This document shows, piece by piece, positions 13,728 through 44,515 of a DNA stretch of 64,000 nucleotides; position 1 is the first letter of the stretch; each line of letters begins with the position of its first letter. The position numbers and the translations under genes were made by a program. The stretch spans positions 1-64,000 of the forward strand of contig JADZAP010000009.1 in the NCBI GenBank assembly GCA_020852705.1, in the 5' to 3' direction. Below the pieces are notes generated by a model. That model saw only the letters and a list, made by a program, of their open reading frames with translations, ran no database searches and was not told where the DNA came from. This DNA comes from Ignavibacteria bacterium. GTDB lineage: Bacteria; Bacteroidota; Ignavibacteria; Tepidaquicellales; OLB5.

Positions 13728-14417
13728 TTATTCTGAATATTGCTTAAGTTTTACAGCATCTGTTATTCTAATAACTTTGCCGTCAACTTCTATCATGCCT
13801 TCATCCTGCAGTTTTTTTAAAGTACGGGAAAGTGTTTCAGGAATTGTGCCAAGATAAGAAGAAAGGTCATTCTTGCTGATAGAGAGTGAAATTTTATTTT
13901 GCTCTTCAGATCGGCGCTCGTTAATAATATAACCTGCTACTCGTCTTGAAACATCTTTTAGCGTAAGCTCTTCAATATGATTATTAAGGTGCCTAAGGCG
14001 TTTTGCAAACCCGGCGCACATCTTAATACAGATTTTTGTATTACTTTCAAGCATTTCAAGAAACAGGCGGGCAGGAACTAAAACAACACGCGTATTATCT
14101 TCTATTGCCATTGCATTTGCGGGATAGCCAAAATTTCCCGAAAGCGTTCCGCTTAAATTTTCAAACAGCGGTACTTCGGCAAATGTATTGTTTGCTGTTA
14201 TAAGATGAAGAATATGTTCTTTTCCATCTTTGGATATTTTATATATCTTAACAAGACCGGCTGAATTGATATAAAAACCTTTATAAGGCTCGGTATCAAA
14301 AAAAATTATATCACCTTTATTAAAAGTTTTAACTTTTACAATTTTTGAAATCTTATCAAGCTCGTTATCATCAAGTCCGGAAAAAATGTAAACCTTTTTT
14401 AAGTTATCACTTGCCAT
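13728..14417 (-). CDS. Crp/Fnr-family transcriptional regulator
   Basis: A 229-residue regulator with an N-terminal cyclic-nucleotide-binding-type beta barrel (about 10-125), a long dimerisation helix (about 125-160) and a C-terminal winged helix-turn-helix, with SKNDLSSYLGTIPETLSRTL (about 181-200) as recognition region. The E-x-x-S-R pattern in the recognition helix predicts TTGAC/TTGAT-type half sites. It lacks the N-terminal cysteine cluster of O2-sensing Fnr, so it is more likely of the Dnr/NnrR or a ligand-free type. A perfect TTGAC-N4-GTCAA palindrome stands before the nos operon 28 kb away and is a reasonable target, by inference. Confidence 0.9.
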   Translation of the reverse strand: MASDNLKKVYIFSGLDDNELDKISKIVKVKTFNKGDIIFFDTEPYKGFYINSAGLVKIYKISKDGKEHILHLITANNTFAEVPLFENLSGTLSGNFGYPANAMAIEDNTRVVLVPARLFLEMLESNTKICIKMCAGFAKRLRHLNNHIEELTLKDVSRRVAGYIINERRSEEQNKISLSISKNDLSSYLGTIPETLSRTLKKLQDEGMIEVDGKVIRITDAVKLKQYSE

Positions 14418-14599: not shown

Positions 14600-15547
14600 A
14601 TGGAAGAATTACAAAAAGATATCACTAAAACGCTTTTATATTATGATATATTTTCGCATCCGTTAAGCGGTGATGAGATATTTTCATTTCTGCCTCACAA
14701 CGCGGTAACTAAAAGTGAGGTAAAAGCCATACTTGCTAAAACGGTATCATCAGGCAAGGCACATTTTTCCGAAAAGGATGGTTATTATTTTATAAAACCA
14801 TCAATTGAAAATGTTTACAGAAGAAAAGAAAAAGAGTTCTGCTCAAAAAAAATGTGGAAGCGTGCAGAATATGTTACGCATATAATAAAAAGATTTCCCT
14901 ATGTACGGGCAGTTATGGTTACAGGCAGTCTTTCAAAAAATTCCAGCGATAAAAATAGTGACATTGATTTTATGCTCATTACAAAACCCGGGCGGCTATG
15001 GATTACCCGTACTTTGCTTATGCTGTTTAAAAAATTATTTTTATTTAACAGCTATAAATTTTTCTGTATTAATTATATTATTACAGAAGATAAACTTGAA
15101 ATTTCAGATAAAAATGTTTTTACTGCAACCGAAATAGCAACAATTAAAGCTGCGTATAATTCTGCATTAATGAATAAGTTTATAAAAAATAACAGCTGGG
15201 TAACAGAGTACTTCCCGAACTATAAACTGTGTGACCCGATGATGCATACAAGCGGCTGTAAAGTAAATGAAAAGGTAAGCATTTTACAGGCTATAGCTGA
15301 ATTTATAATACCGGTGAAATTAGCCACTCTGCTTGATAAAAAGCTGATGTATTTTACCCGCAATCACTGGAAGAAACGCTACCCGCACTTAAATGATGAA
15401 GAACGAAACCTTATGTTCCGCTCTACAGAAAATGTATCTAAAACACACCCTGGCAATATGCAGAAAAAAATACTTGAGCTTTATTCCGAAAGACTAAAAC
15501 AATACAATCTGATTTCCTGCGCAGTTTTAATTTTCATGTTTATTTGA
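14600..15547 (+). CDS. Nucleotidyltransferase-domain protein
   Basis: A 315-residue protein. After an N-terminal winged-helix-like region (residues 1-75) comes a Pol beta-type nucleotidyltransferase core, with VTGSLSKNSSDKNSDIDFML: the Gly-Ser pair at 109-110 and the metal-binding D121 and D123. The long helical C-terminal half has no recognisable domain. It lies 47 bp before a B12-radical SAM gene and heads the biosynthetic region. The substrate cannot be read from sequence. No antitoxin partner is next to it, so a toxin role is less likely than group transfer. Confidence 0.78.
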   Translation: MEELQKDITKTLLYYDIFSHPLSGDEIFSFLPHNAVTKSEVKAILAKTVSSGKAHFSEKDGYYFIKPSIENVYRRKEKEFCSKKMWKRAEYVTHIIKRFPYVRAVMVTGSLSKNSSDKNSDIDFMLITKPGRLWITRTLLMLFKKLFLFNSYKFFCINYIITEDKLEISDKNVFTATEIATIKAAYNSALMNKFIKNNSWVTEYFPNYKLCDPMMHTSGCKVNEKVSILQAIAEFIIPVKLATLLDKKLMYFTRNHWKKRYPHLNDEERNLMFRSTENVSKTHPGNMQKKILELYSERLKQYNLISCAVLIFMFI

Positions 15548-15594
15548 TCTTCTTGAAAATTAATTCATACTAAAATTAATAAATACAATAAATT

Positions 15595-17019
15595 TTGGCA
15601 CAAGTCCTTTTTGCAAATACATATTTTTTAAAGCACGATCCCAAGGAATACCGCAGCATGAATCTGTATGCGCCGCTTGGTACGCTTTATGCAGCAGCAT
15701 TTGTAAAACAAAAAGGTTACTCCGCCGCATTGTTTGATACAATGCTTGCTGAGTCAGAAGAAGACCTTAGGGCTTTGCTTAATGAGCATAAACCCGAATT
15801 TATGGTGATTTATGATGATACATTTAATTACCTTACAAAAATGTGTTTAACCAGAATGCGTGAAGCGGCATTCAGAATGAGCGAAATAGCTAAACAGTTT
15901 GGCTGTATTGTAATAGTTTCGGGTTCTGATAGCGTTGATCATCTGGAAAAATACTTCAGTCATAATGTAGATTATGCAATATGCGGAGAAGGTGAGCAGA
16001 CATTGGGAGAGCTTTTGGATTATTTGACGGGAAATCAATCTAATATTAACGGAATAAATGGGCTTGCATATACTGAAAATGGAAAAATAATTAAAACCGC
16101 TCCGCGAAAAGTATTAAGGGATTTGGATTCACTGCCATACCCTGCATGGGAACTTGTTGATCTTGCTGAGTACCGCAGACTTTGGCAAAAGCATCACGGA
16201 TATTTTTCTATGAATCTTGTTACAACCCGCGGGTGTCCCTTCCATTGTAACTGGTGTGCAAAACCCGTATATGGGCAGGTTTATAATTCACACTCACCGG
16301 AGTATGTTGCAGGTATGATAAAGCATGTGAAGGAAAGATATTCGGCAGAGCATATCTGGTTTTGTGATGATATATTCGGGCTTAAGCCCGGTTGGGTTAC
16401 AAAGTTCAGCGAAATTGTAAACAGCAGAGCAGAAAAGATTCCGTTTAAATGCCTTTCAAGGGCAGATTTGTTATTAAAGGAAGATAATATCCGGCATTTG
16501 GCTAAAGCTGGGTGTGATGAGATATGGATTGGCGCTGAGTCAGGTTCCCAGAAGATACTTGATGCAATGGATAAAGGGACAAAGATAGAAGAAATTTATG
16601 AATCTACAATGCTGCTTAAGAAGTACGGGATTAAAACCTGTTTCTTCCTTCAGTTTGGTTATACCGGTGAAACTATAAGAGAAATTAACGATACTTTAAA
16701 TATGGTTAATGAGCTAATGCCGGATGATATAGGTATTTCAGTAAGTTATCCTTTACCCGGTACAAAATTCTACGAAAGGGTAGCTTCACAGATGAAACAA
16801 AAATTTAACTGGGTGCTTAGTGATGATTTTGAAATGATGTTTGATGGCACATATTCAACAGAATTTTATCGGGTACTTCACAAGCGTGTGCATAAGGAGT
16901 ATCGAACAAGACAATTGATTCATGAACCTCTTAAACGGTTCAGGAGCCTGTGGAAACTGCCTGTATATGCAGCGGGGTGGATAACAAGTTCTAGAAAATT
17001 GAGATCAATGTTAAATTAA
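15595..17019 (+). CDS. B12-binding-domain radical SAM protein (paralogue 1)
   Basis: A 474-residue enzyme with an N-terminal cobalamin-binding-like domain (about 1-150) and a radical SAM domain whose 4Fe-4S triad is C214, C218 and C221 in TRGCPFHCNWC. The GAESGSQKILDAMDKG stretch is the typical SAM-binding/activator part. Such enzymes methylate unactivated carbons or carry out cyclisations in lipids, hopanoids and natural products. Translation appears to start at TTG. The protein is clearly related to the radical SAM enzyme at 19398: both begin with the pattern Y-x-L-K-x-D-P-x-E and then P-L-G-x-L-Y. The product is unknown. Confidence 0.92.
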   Translation: MAQVLFANTYFLKHDPKEYRSMNLYAPLGTLYAAAFVKQKGYSAALFDTMLAESEEDLRALLNEHKPEFMVIYDDTFNYLTKMCLTRMREAAFRMSEIAKQFGCIVIVSGSDSVDHLEKYFSHNVDYAICGEGEQTLGELLDYLTGNQSNINGINGLAYTENGKIIKTAPRKVLRDLDSLPYPAWELVDLAEYRRLWQKHHGYFSMNLVTTRGCPFHCNWCAKPVYGQVYNSHSPEYVAGMIKHVKERYSAEHIWFCDDIFGLKPGWVTKFSEIVNSRAEKIPFKCLSRADLLLKEDNIRHLAKAGCDEIWIGAESGSQKILDAMDKGTKIEEIYESTMLLKKYGIKTCFFLQFGYTGETIREINDTLNMVNELMPDDIGISVSYPLPGTKFYERVASQMKQKFNWVLSDDFEMMFDGTYSTEFYRVLHKRVHKEYRTRQLIHEPLKRFRSLWKLPVYAAGWITSSRKLRSMLN

Positions 17020-35518: not shown

Positions 35519-36295
35519 TTAAAAATCTTTTCTGTTAAAAATGCGGAGAGAAAGCACCGTTGGCACAATTGCCCAGAACAACAGGAGAATGACTGAAAAT
35601 ACCATACCGTAATCTGAACCGAAAAATTTTTGCAAAGTTGCTCCTGTATAACCCATTAGTGCCGATACATCAAGTTGTAAAAGGATAAGCATTCTTGCAA
35701 GGTCAACAGGATTAAGTCCGGAAATTATAATAGTAGCTTTTTCAAGGGGATAGGAACTGAATAAATAATATAACAGCAGCACAAGTGCATCAAATATAAC
35801 TGATAAATAAAACCAAATAACAAGAGATAGTCCTATGCCGCGGGCTTTATCCTTATTTTTTACCGAAGATAAAAATGCAAGAGCAGTGAATATGAATGTT
35901 AGCATCACGCCGCTTACAATAAGTTGAAAAGCACCTGAGATACCGCCGTAAATAAGCAAAGGTAAGCCAGTACCAACAGAAAAACCGGCAGCAAGTGCGA
36001 GTGATAATCCTGCATATTCTGCCCAGAAAATATTTTTTCTCTTAACCGGCATTGCAAGAAGCATTTCCATGAACTCTCTGGAACTATAAAAATGAATAGT
36101 TCCAAAAATTATACTTACTAATGGAACAACCAGCAGAACTATATTCAGCAGACTTAAAACTGCTTTAGTTACATCTTTGCCAATAAAAATAATTCCAAAT
36201 GAAATAATCAATAAAAGCAGGGTGTAGATTATTATCATCTTGCTTCTGAGCACATCATATAAAACATATTTAAATATTTTTAAAGCAGTATTCAT
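35519..36295 (-). CDS. nosY: NosY, ABC transporter permease for NosZ maturation
   Basis: A 258-residue membrane protein with about six hydrophobic helices and the ABC-2/NosY pattern (YSSREFMEMLLAMPVKRKNIFWAEY in two pieces: YSSREFMEMLLAMPVKR then KNIFWAEY). It pairs with NosF, which it overlaps by 4 nt (start ATG within the NosF stop region), and with NosD to feed a sulfur species or copper for the CuZ site of nitrous oxide reductase. It is the last gene of the nos operon. Confidence 0.9.
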   Translation of the reverse strand: MNTALKIFKYVLYDVLRSKMIIIYTLLLLIISFGIIFIGKDVTKAVLSLLNIVLLVVPLVSIIFGTIHFYSSREFMEMLLAMPVKRKNIFWAEYAGLSLALAAGFSVGTGLPLLIYGGISGAFQLIVSGVMLTFIFTALAFLSSVKNKDKARGIGLSLVIWFYLSVIFDALVLLLYYLFSSYPLEKATIIISGLNPVDLARMLILLQLDVSALMGYTGATLQKFFGSDYGMVFSVILLLFWAIVPTVLSLRIFNRKDF

Positions 36296-38315: not shown

Positions 38316-38783
38316 CTATTTACTCACCTTAAATTTTGTCAGCAGGTCATCCCAGTTTTTAAGTTCTCCTCCGTATTGTGTTTGGCTTACAGCGGCATCA
38401 TTTTTATTGCTGTAAGCGCTCAGGTTAGCCCCCATGGGACTTGGAAATTTTTCACTGATAAGGTAAGATGCCTCTAATGCATTTGTAAGCTGTTTTGGGT
38501 TTGCTGAATCTATTACATAAAATCCAGCAGCATCGGAGTAGGCAATATCTCCAAGACTTAATGCATTAAACATGCATTCAGCAGCATCATATTTATATAT
38601 TTTCCCCTTTTTTGTGACTATTTCAGCACCAAAACGCTGCTCTGAAATATTCATCTTGCAATGCGAACATTGATCTGTACCAAAGTTTATTGGATCAGGG
38701 GTGGTACTGCATGCCATAAACATCGGCAGCCCCAATAACAGTAGTATTTGTATCTTTATTATATTACGCGTGAACAAATTCAT
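38316..38783 (-). CDS. nosL: NosL, copper-binding lipoprotein
   Basis: A 155-residue lipoprotein: lipobox MFMAC (Cys at 25) and the copper motif CSHCKM followed by FGAEI, typical of NosL/NosL-like metallochaperones. It delivers Cu(I) for NosZ. It overlaps the preceding membrane-protein gene by 20 nt, so it is translationally coupled to it. Confidence 0.93.
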   Translation of the reverse strand: MNLFTRNIIKIQILLLLGLPMFMACSTTPDPINFGTDQCSHCKMNISEQRFGAEIVTKKGKIYKYDAAECMFNALSLGDIAYSDAAGFYVIDSANPKQLTNALEASYLISEKFPSPMGANLSAYSNKNDAAVSQTQYGGELKNWDDLLTKFKVSK

Positions 38784-39429
38784 TTTTTATTTTAGCTGAA
38801 GAGATTTTTTCAGTCTGTGGTTTTACCTCTTTAATCACAGCATTTTTCTTAATACTTTGTGTTACTTTTTTTCTGCTTTTTAATTCATAAACCAGTAAAG
38901 AAACGGATAGTAAACCTGCACCGATTACAAACCAGCCCCCTATGTCGGGATATGAATGTGCCGTAAAGTTAAGAAGCTGTTTACTACCTATTAATGGCGG
39001 CTGGTAACTCATACCCGGGACTATAATTGCAGCATCTTCATTTAAGTTATGTCCGTAGTCGTACTCCCATATATAAAAATCTATACCTCCTGCAATTCCA
39101 ACAATTACAAAAACTATAACAAATGTCCAAAGCAGTTTTTTATTTCCTGCAATTCCGGTTATTACACCAAATATAATTAACCCCGCAAGTATATAAGGCA
39201 TCATTGTAAGTTCTTTAATTGAATCAGGTTCAATCTTTTTCATACCTATGTAGTGATTCAAACCATTTATAGTATTCAAATCTCCTGATATTTTATTTAA
39301 CCAAATCTTCATCCCAAGTCCTTCGGGATACTGCGGCGCTTCAAGATCTATCATCCAAAGCGGTGTAAAAAATGCAGTAACCATTGCCAGCGCCGAAACT
39401 ATAATTAATATTCTTGTTGTCTTTTTCAT
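38764..39429 (-). CDS. Membrane protein of the nos cluster (NosB-like)
   Basis: A 221-residue protein with about four transmembrane helices (near 7-27, 75-95, 100-122 and 165-185), a periplasmic segment with conserved-looking Trp, His and Asp residues and a lysine-rich cytoplasmic tail. In clade II nos clusters a polytopic protein (NosB) usually follows nosZ, and this gene has that place. There is no NosR. Identity with NosB is inferred from topology and position only. Confidence 0.6.
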   Translation of the reverse strand: MKKTTRILIIVSALAMVTAFFTPLWMIDLEAPQYPEGLGMKIWLNKISGDLNTINGLNHYIGMKKIEPDSIKELTMMPYILAGLIIFGVITGIAGNKKLLWTFVIVFVIVGIAGGIDFYIWEYDYGHNLNEDAAIIVPGMSYQPPLIGSKQLLNFTAHSYPDIGGWFVIGAGLLSVSLLVYELKSRKKVTQSIKKNAVIKEVKPQTEKISSAKIKNEFVHA

Positions 39430-39478
39430 TTTTTTAAAGGAGTCCCCGCATTAAGCAGGGACTCTGTGATATTTAAAT

Positions 39479-41600: not shown

Positions 41601-42038
41601 TTATTCCTTTGGCGTAACTTTTCCTTCATCAACTGCACGCATATATTCAAGGATTGCTCTTGCATCATCCTGGCTTACATCCTGGAAAGTCATTTGAACA
41701 AGATACTGGGCAAGGAGCTCTTTTGTAATTTTATCTTTCTGTGCCATTTCAACCGGATTAAGTATCTGATTCATTATCCATTCAGGTCTTCTTCTTTTTG
41801 TTACATCTTTAAGGGGTGGACCCACTAATTTTGAATTGAATTTATGGCATGTAATACATTTTGTGTTAAAAATAGTTTCACCCTTTGCATAAAGTGCTGC
41901 ATCTACCGGAGCTAATTTCATTTCTTCCTTAACAGGACCTATGCCTATATCTTCTTTTTGACCGCAGCCAAATAAAAAAACTGTGATAATAAGTGTGAAT
42001 ATTGATGATGTTAATAATTTTATTCTCTTTGATCTCAT
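41601..42038 (-). CDS. Lipoprotein cytochrome c of the nos operon
   Basis: A 145-residue monoheme class I cytochrome c. The signal peptide ends in the lipobox FLFGC (C25), and the heme site is CITCH (61-65) with a likely distal Met in the MTF region near residue 110. Its place directly upstream of nosZ suggests it is the electron donor to the CuA site, comparable to NosC proteins in clade II clusters. It is 31 bp from the RIC gene. Confidence 0.9.
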   Translation of the reverse strand: MRSKRIKLLTSSIFTLIITVFLFGCGQKEDIGIGPVKEEMKLAPVDAALYAKGETIFNTKCITCHKFNSKLVGPPLKDVTKRRRPEWIMNQILNPVEMAQKDKITKELLAQYLVQMTFQDVSQDDARAILEYMRAVDEGKVTPKE

Positions 42039-42069: not shown

Positions 42070-42804
42070 TTATAGTGTGGTGTAGTATCTTGTCATTTGT
42101 TTTTCAAGCTCAATTGCTTTTGGAAATAATATATTGTTTTCAAGGTGAATATGTATATGCAGGTCTGCTTCAAACTCTTTAAGTTCACCATATAATACTC
42201 TGTATGTACCGCAGGCATCATTTGGAGGGTTATATCCGTCTGAAAGAGTGTTTATAGTATCTAACATTATTCCTGCTCCATCATGCTCGTGCTCCATAAC
42301 TTTAAGCGGGTTACTAACAGAACCAAATGGTGCAGCGGGTATTTCTATATTATTTTTTTTGGCAAAGCTCAATTTTTTTATATAAGGAAACAGCATTCTT
42401 TCTTCTTTTGCCATGTGTTCTAGCAACTCATCTTTAAGATCATTAAAAACTATGCTGATATTTGCAAGTTCAGGATGACGCTCACCGTGTGCATTTACAA
42501 CTTTTTGCAGGTGATGCTCTATAGTTGAAATTGAATTATTAACATAAGAGTGATGATTGTTAATAATATAATCAACCAAAAAATCTGCTTCCCATTTTTC
42601 AAAATGAGTTTGTGTTGGGTTAGAAGCATTTGCATTTACAAGTTCATCAATAAGTTTTTCTGCATCAACTCCTTTTTCAATGCAGGCATTTTCAATGGTT
42701 TTTTTACCGCCGCAGCAGAAATCAAGCCCATAGCTTTCAAAAACACGGGCAGTGTGAAAATTTTGTGATACTACATCACCAATTTTTGTTTCTTTCTGAA
42801 TCAT
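42070..42804 (-). CDS. ric: RIC-type iron-sulfur cluster repair di-iron protein (ScdA/YtfE)
   Basis: A 244-residue RIC protein. The N-terminal ScdA_N domain has DFCCGG (C30 and C31) and the rest is a hemerythrin-like di-iron bundle with several His and Glu ligands (HHSYVNNS, HERHPEL, EHMAKEE, MEHEHDG and HIHLENNILFP). It repairs iron-sulfur clusters damaged by nitric oxide. It is the first gene of the nos operon, and its promoter holds a Crp/Fnr-type site, fitting an NO- or low-oxygen-induced response. Confidence 0.95.
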   Translation of the reverse strand: MIQKETKIGDVVSQNFHTARVFESYGLDFCCGGKKTIENACIEKGVDAEKLIDELVNANASNPTQTHFEKWEADFLVDYIINNHHSYVNNSISTIEHHLQKVVNAHGERHPELANISIVFNDLKDELLEHMAKEERMLFPYIKKLSFAKKNNIEIPAAPFGSVSNPLKVMEHEHDGAGIMLDTINTLSDGYNPPNDACGTYRVLYGELKEFEADLHIHIHLENNILFPKAIELEKQMTRYYTTL

Positions 42805-42840
42805 TTGCTTTTTTAATTTTTTAGTTTTATTTTTCTAATA

Positions 42841-42848
42841 CAAAATTA
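42841..42848 (-). promoter_or_regulatory. TAnnTTTG minus-7 element of the nos operon
   Basis: On the minus strand this reads TAATTTTG, a full match to the Bacteroidota-type minus-7 consensus. The start of transcription would lie near 42835, about 30 nt before the RIC start codon. Confidence 0.55.
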
Positions 42849-42870
42849 ACGTTATTTAATTGTATTGCCT

Positions 42871-42884
42871 TTGACTTAAGTCAA
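42871..42884. promoter_or_regulatory. Crp/Fnr-type operator TTGAC-TTAA-GTCAA
   Basis: A perfect 14-bp palindrome. Its centre is about 42 bp from the start of transcription expected from the minus-7 element at 42841-42848, which is the class II activator position. It is the expected site of a Dnr/NnrR/Fnr-type regulator, possibly the crp-like gene at 13728-14417. Confidence 0.75.
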
Positions 42885-43074
42885 TATGCTTAAAATTTAT
42901 GGATTATATAGCTGGAATTTATGGAGTTAAAACAGGAATTGAGGATTTAAATCAGATATGTTTTCACTAACTCAAAAAATCAACAGCTTGAGATTTGTTT
43001 TTAGTGCTGCAGATGTTAGGTTGAAAATAAAAAAGGATCAAGAAAAATAAATTTAAAATATGTTAAGCAGTATG

Positions 43075-43263
43075 TTAAACAGTTTTATTTATATTATTCG
43101 GCTTAAAGCCAATAGATAACAAAAAGACTTCGTCAACATTTTTCAGGGCATTAAGGGCTGTTAAAACAGCTCCATCAGATTTAAATACAGTTTTACCGGC
43201 AGTATTATCGGTATAATTAATGCCAACAAACGAAATGAATATTTTGGGTTTAGGTTTTTTCAC
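43075..43263 (-). pseudogene. Possible N-terminal fragment of a CARF-like/RtcR-like protein
   Basis: A 62-codon frame starting at GTG. The sequence has a Rossmann-like first strand (PKIFISFVG), then a loop, then SDGAVLTALNALKNVDEVFLL, which reminds me of the N terminus of CARF-domain and RtcR-type proteins of defence and RNA-repair loci. It stops after NNINKTV, far short of any complete domain, in a stretch full of remnants. Treat it as a broken gene; the family link is a by-eye resemblance. Confidence 0.35.
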
Positions 43264-43335
43264 TGTTTGATATCCCTAAATTATCCTTTTATAATTTGTT
43301 TTTTTAAGCTATTGTACATATTGCATTTTTACATA

Positions 43336-43418
43336 GTGATAGGCCTGTGTGCCTGTCACACTTGTTTATGCGTATAACGATACCACGGTTATTTCTTATG
43401 GACGACACACAGGTCGTC
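43336..43418. repeat. Pair of REP-like hairpins with complementary loops
   Basis: Hairpin 1 (43336-43359) has GTGATAGGC and GCCTGTCAC around the loop CTGTGT. Hairpin 2 (43401-43418) has GACGAC and GTCGTC around the loop ACACAG. The two loops are exact reverse complements, so the hairpins are inverted copies of one loop with different, internally paired stems. It lies next to a dead RAYT transposase, the enzyme family that moves REP elements. Confidence 0.65.
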
Positions 43419-43441
43419 AGCTACGGGAGTATTGATAATAA

Positions 43442-43678
43442 TTTACCGTGTATATGATTAGGCATGATAATAAACTGATCAAGGATTATATTTTTAAATT
43501 TATTTTCAATTTCAAACCACCATTTTTAAATCATTAAACCAGCTTCGGTTAGAAATGAGTTTTCATCTTTAATTTCAGAAAGAACATGATGATTATCATA
43601 AACACAAATTGTCAGGAAATATGAATAACCCAATGAGTAACCAAAACCTTTCAGTCTGTTTGGTTTTCTGAATTTCAT
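43442..43678 (-). pseudogene. REP-associated tyrosine transposase (RAYT, Y1/TnpA-like) remnant
   Basis: Reading the minus strand from the ATG at 43678 gives MKFRKPNRLKGFGYSLGYSY, then FLTICVYD, an in-frame TAA (43526-43528) after about 50 codons, and in the same frame ILDQFIIMPNHIHGK. The last is the HxH (His-hydrophobic-His) catalytic motif of Y1/RAYT transposases with its usual preceding strand. The frame dies a few codons later, and the rest of the gene, including the catalytic Tyr, is missing. REP-like hairpins lie just beyond. This is a truncated, nonsense-mutated RAYT. Confidence 0.85.
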
Positions 43679-43687
43679 TATTTGCGG

Positions 43688-44515
43688 TTAATACTCAATC
43701 TTTTCAAGGAACAGCCCTGATGGCGGAGCGGTGAATTGTGCGATGGATTCAACTTCACTCTCCGTCCGCCTCTCAATAGAAGTGAGCGGGTGAAGTAAAT
43801 TTACAATTTGATGCGTTTCCATTTTCCCTCTGCCAACTTCAACTAATGTACCAATAATTCTTCGTACCATCTTCCATAAAAAGTGCGAGGCTTTTATACG
43901 GAAATAAATTTTATCTTTATCTTCGGTAATGGTTAATGATTCAACTAAACACTTGGTTGATTTTTCAATATTTGAACGGCTACCCCTTTTTTTTGGTGAG
44001 GAGATTTTTGGCGATTTATCGAGTTCCGAAAATGCTTTGAAGTCATGCATACCAATAAATAATGCTGCAGCTTCTTTCATTTTTTTTACACTTAATTTAT
44101 CTTTAACCCACCACACAAAGCGTTTTTCAAACGCCGTGCGGCGTTTTGAAATAATATATAAATACTGCCTTGATTTTGCACTATGCCGTGCATGGAAATC
44201 AGCACGGGCTTTTTCTATTTCAAGTATATTTATATCCCCGGGAAGCTCGTCATTAATTTTCGTTTTCAGTATTTCAGGAGCAAGCATTGTTTCACAATCT
44301 ATATGAGCAACCTGCTCAATTGCATGCACACCTGCATCAGTTCTTCCTGAGCCCTGAAGATCAATAAATTTATTTGTGCCTTTATTTTTTTTAAATACAG
44401 TTTGAATTGCTGTTATAAGAGTGCCCTGTACAGTCTTAACTTTTGATTCACCCGGTTGTTTCTGCCAGCCGGAATAGTTTGCACCGCCATATTCAATATA
44501 AATTTTAAATTTCAT
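43688..44515 (-). CDS. truA: tRNA pseudouridine synthase A
   Basis: A 275-residue TruA. Starting at the second ATG of the frame puts the catalytic Asp of GSGRTDAGVHA at residue 60, as in E. coli, which is why I discard the 11 extra codons upstream. It makes pseudouridine at positions 38-40 of the tRNA anticodon stem. A Lys/Ser-rich insertion (about 175-195, SPKKRGSRSNIEKS) sits between conserved core segments, and the C-terminal HFLWKMVRRIIGTLVEVGRG is intact. Confidence 0.96.
   Translation of the reverse strand: MKFKIYIEYGGANYSGWQKQPGESKVKTVQGTLITAIQTVFKKNKGTNKFIDLQGSGRTDAGVHAIEQVAHIDCETMLAPEILKTKINDELPGDINILEIEKARADFHARHSAKSRQYLYIISKRRTAFEKRFVWWVKDKLSVKKMKEAAALFIGMHDFKAFSELDKSPKISSPKKRGSRSNIEKSTKCLVESLTITEDKDKIYFRIKASHFLWKMVRRIIGTLVEVGRGKMETHQIVNLLHPLTSIERRTESEVESIAQFTAPPSGLFLEKIEY

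What the first reader, a model, noticed from the sequence alone, without database searches (positions are those of the whole stretch)
42804..42884. Class II-placed Crp/Fnr site over a TAnnTTTG promoter for the nos operon
TTGACTTAAGTCAA is perfect and centred about 42 bp from the expected transcription start given by the TAATTTTG element. This predicts the whole RIC-nosZ-nosY operon is one regulon unit answering NO or low oxygen.
Basis: partly seen in the sequence, partly recalled or inferred. Interest (0 to 1): 0.6.

Follow-up and report, generated by a model that had tools for sequence, protein, structure and literature searches.

The report
Conserved activator switch for nos operon
A short DNA palindrome sits exactly where a Crp/Fnr-type activator should sit to turn on the genes that remove the greenhouse gas nitrous oxide, and in related bacteria the gene for the likely activator lies right next to it.

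Summary
TTGACTTAAGTCAA (42871-42884) is a perfect palindrome lying 22 bp upstream of a TAATTTTG element (42848-42841, minus strand) ahead of RIC-nosC-nosZ...nosY. Placing the start site as in the Flavobacterium psychrophilum map (TAnnTTTG at -12 to -5) puts +1 at 42836 and the palindrome centre at -41.5, the class II position. The exact module occurs 39 times in 44 genomes of the order (reversed control: 3), and flanks have diverged around it. The window is an exception, about 28 kb apart. Of 11 genomes lacking the orthologue, 10 lack the module; the other has a truncated contig. Other targets include nrfHA nitrite reductase. The regulator resembles DNR and lacks an FNR-type cysteine cluster, so NO is the likelier signal, but this is untested. 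A second site class (ATGA...TCAT) uses the same spacing and probably serves an FNR-like paralogue. This is a new variant of a known kind; no binding, start-site or expression data exist.

The parts
42871..42884 (-). Crp/Fnr-type palindrome TTGACTTAAGTCAA, centre predicted at -41.5
42841..42848 (-). TAATTTTG, Bacteroidota-type -7 promoter element, 22 bp downstream of the palindrome
   Evidence: position of TAnnTTTG relative to +1 from PMC9723704
42836..42836 (-). predicted transcription start (A)
   Evidence: inferred from spacing
42805..42836 (-). predicted 32-nt leader of the nos transcript
   Evidence: inferred
42070..42804 (-). RIC (ScdA/YtfE-type iron-sulfur cluster repair di-iron protein)
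   Evidence: TIGR03652 4.9e-72, above cut-off
41601..42038 (-). monohaem c-type cytochrome between RIC and nosZ (nosC-like position)
   Evidence: PF00034
39479..41509 (-). nosZ, Sec-dependent (clade II) nitrous oxide reductase
   Evidence: TIGR04246 1.8e-288
39430..39478 (-). hairpin directly after nosZ (-20 kcal/mol, weak U tract): possible attenuator or mRNA stabiliser
38764..39429 (-). membrane protein of the nos operon, no Pfam or NCBIfam match
38316..38783 (-). nosL
   Evidence: PF05573
37032..38282 (-). nosD
   Evidence: TIGR04247, PF05048
36292..37023 (-). nosF-like ABC ATPase
   Evidence: PF00005 and position
35519..36295 (-). nosY-like ABC-2 permease
   Evidence: PF12679 and position
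13728..14417 (-). RegA: DNR-like Crp/Fnr regulator, likely binder of the palindrome

Best explanation
The palindrome is the binding site of the DNR-like Crp/Fnr protein encoded at 13728-14417 (called RegA here). Bound at -41.5, RegA contacts RNA polymerase carrying the Bacteroidota primary sigma factor and activates the TAnnTTTG promoter as a class II activator, driving RIC, the c-type cytochrome, nosZ and the nos maturation genes from a start at about 42836. Shown here: anatomy, conservation, fixed spacing, linkage and co-occurrence with RegA, and module sites also before nrfHA. Inferred: binding by RegA, activation rather than repression, the start site, and NO (rather than oxygen) as the signal.
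For: In 14 genomes of the genus and family, mean identity to the commonest base is 0.99 in the palindrome and 0.94 in TAnnTTTG but 0.57 in the 40 bp upstream. Among 80 NosZ loci (mostly Bacteroidota by record title; one is titled Binatia), 30 have a TGAYN4RTCA palindrome followed by TAnnTTTG upstream of nosZ on the operon strand; 28 of the 30 have a gap of exactly 22 although 15-30 was allowed. Own genome plus two relatives: 66 of 92 matches at gaps 23/24 counted from TGA, out of 13-35. Order: module in 25 of 44 genomes, 39 copies against 3 reversed controls. RegA orthologue at E<1e-40 in 24 of those 25; the exception, G217, is 75% complete and its contig starts 205 bp before the site. Table 24/9/1/10, Fisher p 3e-4, not corrected for kinship. 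In 19 of 24 the site lies within 1 kb downstream of RegA on the same strand (the script lists 18; for G046 it overwrote the nos site with a second one, and the coordinates give 357 bp). Recognition helix S197-R198 in 34 of 34 and E194 in 33 of 34 aligned rows, the window being entered twice. RegA plus site also precede nrfH-nrfA in G005 and G147, which lack nosZ. RegA plus TTGACTTAAGTCAA also occurs in G130, a family outside the order. Best solved relative is DNR 3dkw, 4.6e-25.
Against: No experiment. Three Crp/Fnr proteins are encoded in the genome, and the FNR-like one could also bind. In the window RegA is not linked to the site. In G070, G097, G239 and G110 the module and RegA lie on different contigs. 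Of 9 RegA genomes without the exact module, two (G155, G189) showed no site beside RegA. Outside the order, 2 of 250 genomes have the exact module (G152, G281; neither listed with RegA at 1e-30), while 48 have a RegA homologue at that level. No haem-ligand residue was shown to be conserved.
Confidence: 0.83

Rival explanations
1. The site is bound by the FNR-like paralogue (own genome C34, about 48.2 kb) that carries N-terminal cysteines, so the nos operon answers oxygen through an iron-sulfur cluster rather than NO through RegA.
For: That protein matches the Fnr model better than RegA does (1.1e-29 against 1.8e-17) and has C-X2-C-X8-C near its start (read). Its inferred sites (ATGAYN4RTCAT) share spacing and the TGAY core with the nos site.
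Against: RegA, not the FNR-like gene, is the linked gene and tracks the TTGAC module. First base of the half-site at gaps 23/24 in G000, G016 and G063: 58 A, 7 T, 1 C (counted by eye), so the T class is a separate minority; the 6 T sites of G000 and G016 precede nos (2), the membrane protein gene (2), the nrf operon (1) and the cupin gene (1).
Confidence: 0.12
2. RegA binds but represses, or acts both ways.
For: Position alone cannot separate activation from occlusion; no expression data.
Against: A centre at -41.5 with a fixed 22-bp gap, over a promoter with no evident -33 TTTG box, fits class II activation (recalled from FNR/CRP work). A repressor would not need one fixed spacing across promoters.
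Confidence: 0.05
3. Chance palindrome next to a chance TAnnTTTG; nos transcribed from elsewhere.
For: The palindrome alone is only about twofold over control in the genome; TAnnTTTG occurs 119 times in the window, both strands.
Against: Conservation, spacing statistics and linkage.
Confidence: 0.01

Closest known systems
DNR / FNR / NnrR control of nos, nir and nor operons in Proteobacteria (Rodionov et al. 2005, PMC1274295, passages read)
   Same: Crp/Fnr-family regulator, TTGAY-type palindrome, nitrogen-oxide target genes including nos.
   Different: Here the promoter element is TAnnTTTG, targets are clade II nos and nrfHA in Ignavibacteria, the site core is TTGACTTAAGTCAA, and the regulator gene heads the operon in relatives.
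HcpR sites TTGACnnnnGTCAA in cyanobacteria (PMC1274295, passage)
   Same: Same half-site consensus.
   Different: Targets there are hcp and norB; no relation of RegA to HcpR was tested.
BT4338 of Bacteroides thetaiotaomicron at fusA2 (PMC6989115, passages read)
   Same: A Bacteroidota regulator (a CRP-family protein: recalled) binding upstream of a -7 element.
   Different: Different site (wwwTATGTTnTAnAACATAwww) and a role in carbon limitation.
Flavobacterium psychrophilum sigma-A promoters (PMC9723704, passages read)
   Same: TAnnTTTG element, there mapped at -12 to -5.
   Different: Crp and Fnr are not mentioned in its main text.

Membership tests
Class II Crp/Fnr-activated promoter | Site centred at about -41.5 from the start site | tested here: inconclusive
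   Centre -41.5 if TAnnTTTG lies at -12 to -5; start site not mapped
Class II Crp/Fnr-activated promoter | Fixed site-to-promoter spacing across promoters | tested here: met
   66 of 92 at two adjacent spacings; 28 of 30 at gap 22
Class II Crp/Fnr-activated promoter | Activation by contact with RNA polymerase | not testable with these tools
   needs in vitro transcription
DNR-type regulators | Crp/Fnr domains with E..SR recognition helix | tested here: met
   PF00027 and PF13545; E194/S197/R198
DNR-type regulators | Closest relation to DNR among characterised members | tested here: inconclusive
   Best PDB match DNR 3dkw 4.6e-25, others 7e-16 or weaker; NCBIfam best is FtrB at 83.9 bits, cut-off 211; no tree made
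DNR-type regulators | Haem-based NO sensing | not testable with these tools
   no ligand residues established; needs spectroscopy
FNR proper | N-terminal cysteine cluster for [4Fe-4S] | tested here: not met
   RegA has only C130 and C134
Bacteroidota primary sigma promoter | TAnnTTTG element at the expected place | tested here: met
   TAATTTTG in the window; kept at the same spacing in the relatives aligned
Clade II nos operon | Sec-dependent NosZ with nosL, nosD, nosF, nosY | tested here: met
   TIGR04246, PF05573, TIGR04247, PF00005, PF12679

The most novel reading that the evidence does not exclude
These Ignavibacteria run two parallel class II Crp/Fnr regulons on the same TAnnTTTG promoter frame, told apart mainly by the outer base of the half-site: TTGAY...RTCAA for the DNR-like RegA (nos, nrfHA, a cupin, a membrane protein) and ATGAY...RTCAT for the FNR-like paralogue (many genes). 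RegA would sense NO or a related species without the FNR cysteines. The same -41.5 frame recurs at nos promoters across Bacteroidota, so clade II N2O reduction there would be under direct Crp/Fnr control.
Probability: 0.55. Interest if true: 0.6.

Novelty: new variant of a known kind. Interest (0 to 1): 0.5.

Why it matters
Clade II nosZ bacteria, Ignavibacteria among them, are N2O consumers in reactors and soils (recalled), yet what turns their nos genes on is poorly known. [quoted passage not shown] This gives a named regulator, an exact site, a predicted start base and a small regulon that can be tested. It also gives a genome-readable rule (palindrome, 22 bp, TAnnTTTG) for Crp/Fnr class II promoters in Bacteroidota.

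Tried and rejected
Rejected: palindrome alone as proof (29 places against 14 controls). Near-copies elsewhere in the window: apart from the nos site, none with up to 2 mismatches in the palindrome has an exact TAnnTTTG at 21-23 bp; the closest, 38309 on the minus strand, TTGATTTAAATTAA with TAATTTTT, would place the promoter inside nosD. Exact TTGAYN4RTCAA sites inside long reading frames of the own genome (several) were set aside as likely chance, and about half of the 29 own-genome places were never inspected (those without a locus, apart from C44:80418). Gap-20 matches in G063 share one repeated coding-like sequence and were not taken for promoters, though they stay in the total of 92. The third Crp-like protein (C34, about 47.4 kb) lacks the E..SR helix (read) and was not pursued. 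Haem ligands could not be settled. No structure was predicted. Genes under the ATGA-type sites were not identified.

Full report
What is there. The minus strand upstream of RIC reads TTGACTTAAGTCAA (42884-42871), 22 bp, TAATTTTG (42848-42841), then TATTAGAAA and the ATG at 42804. The genes that follow are RIC, a c-type cytochrome, Sec-type nosZ, an unnamed membrane protein, nosL, nosD, a nosF-like ATPase and a nosY-like permease. In F. psychrophilum the TAnnTTTG element was mapped at -12 to -5 (PMC9723704, passages read). Applied here, +1 is 42836 and the palindrome centre is -41.5. That is the class II position known for FNR and CRP (recalled).

More than chance. The palindrome by itself is not: 29 places in the own genome against 14 for the reversed pattern, and no enrichment of near-matches in the window. 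The module is. TTGACN4GTCAA-N22-TAnnTTTG is found 39 times in 25 of 44 genomes of the order, with 3 reversed-control matches. When the gap between TAnnTTTG and the TGAY core was left free from 13 to 35, 92 matches in three genomes (own, G016, G063) gave 52 at gap 23 and 14 at gap 24, the rest scattered; a gap of 23 from TGA equals 22 from the 14-mer. Of 80 NosZ loci fetched from genome contigs, 30 carry a palindrome plus TAnnTTTG upstream of nosZ on the operon strand, 28 of them at gap 22, one at 21 and one at 23; 50 do not, some of them because the contig ends near nosZ. On the opposite strand of the same stretches 10 of 80 loci also match, all at gap 22, so that strand is not a clean control.

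Conservation. In 14 genomes of the genus and family the palindrome and the TAnnTTTG frame are kept while the 40 bp upstream are not (0.99 and 0.94 against 0.57 mean identity to the commonest base). That script picked promoters by a pattern holding both elements, so the informative parts are that such a promoter was found in all 14, the fixed gap (also seen, where only the palindrome was required), and the contrast with the flanks. Four bases after the palindrome (AGGG) are also kept (0.95), unexplained.

The regulator. The own genome has three Crp/Fnr proteins. In 33 of 44 genomes of the order an orthologue is found at E<1e-40. It is present in 24 of the 25 genomes with the module and in 9 of the 19 without (Fisher p 3e-4; 0.0035 within the sister family f2 alone; neither corrected for kinship). 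The exception, G217, is 75% complete and its contig begins 205 bp before the site. In 19 of the 24 the site lies 21-804 bp downstream of RegA on the same strand. The other five are G110, G070, G097 and G239, with RegA on another contig, and the window itself. In relatives such as G026 and G046, RegA is flanked by the same divergent genes (an MEELQK... protein and a radical-SAM-like protein; the latter name is recalled from its look, not searched) that flank it in the window at 14600-17019, and nos follows on the other side. In the window the nos operon has been separated from RegA by about 28 kb.

Genomes without the exact module. Of the 9 that have RegA, six have a variant site beside it: G209 TTGATTTAAATCAA, G147 TTGATATTAATCAA, G193 and G220 with TAnnTTTA at 22 bp, G083 and G116 with TAnnTTTA at 23 bp. 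G155 and G189 showed none, and G090 was not looked at. Three genomes have nosZ but no RegA: G181, G213 and G055. None has the module or a RIC gene directly before nos in the stretches fetched. G055 has CTGACGCAAATCAT instead, 22 bp before TAATTTGT (read by eye). G055's contig has the same length as that of Ignavibacteriales bacterium UTCHB1 (L084).

Regulon. TTGAY-type sites with the module spacing precede nrfH-nrfA (G046 and, by sequence likeness, G016, behind a porin-like gene; in G171 the contig ends within the porin-like gene; directly in G005 and G147), a 109-aa cupin (G016, G046, G171, G163), and a 362-372-aa membrane protein without Pfam match (G000, G016, G046, G163). NrfH and NrfA were tested with profiles in G046 and G005 only. 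In the own genome the nos site and the membrane-protein site (C28) are the only two of 14 gap-23/24 sites that begin with T; 12 begin with A (by eye).

Beyond the order. In 250 other genomes of the class the exact module occurs in 2. RegA homologues at 1e-30 occur in 48 of them (81 of 294 less 33). Two cases with RegA near nosZ were read: G130 has TTGACTTAAGTCAA just after RegA and 22 bp before TAGTTTTT; G042 has ATGACAGAAGTCAA between RegA and RIC without TAnnTTTG.

Signal. RegA lacks the cysteine set of FNR (only C130 and C134), so an iron-sulfur oxygen switch is unlikely. NO is inferred from DNR likeness and from the targets (nos, nrf, and RIC, whose protein repairs NO-damaged clusters; recalled). 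H68, H71, H143 and H147 are kept in 24-26 of 34 rows, so none is established as a ligand.

One unit? The five gaps between operon genes that were read hold no TAnnTTTG, which supports one transcript. A 10-bp hairpin follows nosZ in the window (-20 kcal/mol), and most of the 14 relatives inspected also fold a hairpin there, with unrelated sequences (L057 not clearly, read by eye, no shuffled control). It may set the ratio of nosZ to the maturation genes.

Literature. Nine searches listed no paper whose title or shown abstract describes Crp/Fnr control of nos in Ignavibacteria. [quoted passage not shown] its main Ignavibacteria genome groups with OLB and UT genomes. If UTCHB1 is the RegA-less G055, as the contig length suggests, that statement and the present finding may both be right. 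PMC12040651 (passages) gave nothing on this site. Other listed papers were not opened.

Noticed in passing
39430-39478, and after nosZ in most of L049-L056, L059, L063, L074, L095, L110: Hairpins of unrelated sequence recur directly after nosZ, before the downstream nos genes: possible attenuator or stabiliser.
   Followed up: partly
G000, G016, G063: Large second class of class II sites, ATGAYN4RTCA at 22-23 bp from TAnnTTTG, 58 of 66; one lies before the third Crp-like gene on C34 near a gene that looks like a universal stress protein.
   Followed up: partly
42885-43690: Where relatives carry RegA, the window has short broken frames: 43526-43678 with a downstream ...MPNHIHG... stretch resembling a decayed REP-type transposase (recalled motif) and a 62-aa frame at 43075-43263.
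   Followed up: partly
42867-42870: AGGG (AGGC in the window) right after the palindrome is conserved in the genus; not explained by either half-site or promoter element.
   Followed up: no
38764-39429: Membrane protein between nosZ and nosL, no Pfam or NCBIfam match.
   Followed up: no
L196:2191-3279 and relatives: Unnamed 362-372-aa membrane protein recurrently under TTGAY-type sites, next to a crcB-like gene (recalled likeness) and a DUF190 gene.
   Followed up: partly
G055 (L261): A nosZ genome without RegA has a CTGACGCAAATCAT site at the same 22-bp spacing, as if nos had passed to the other regulator.
   Followed up: no
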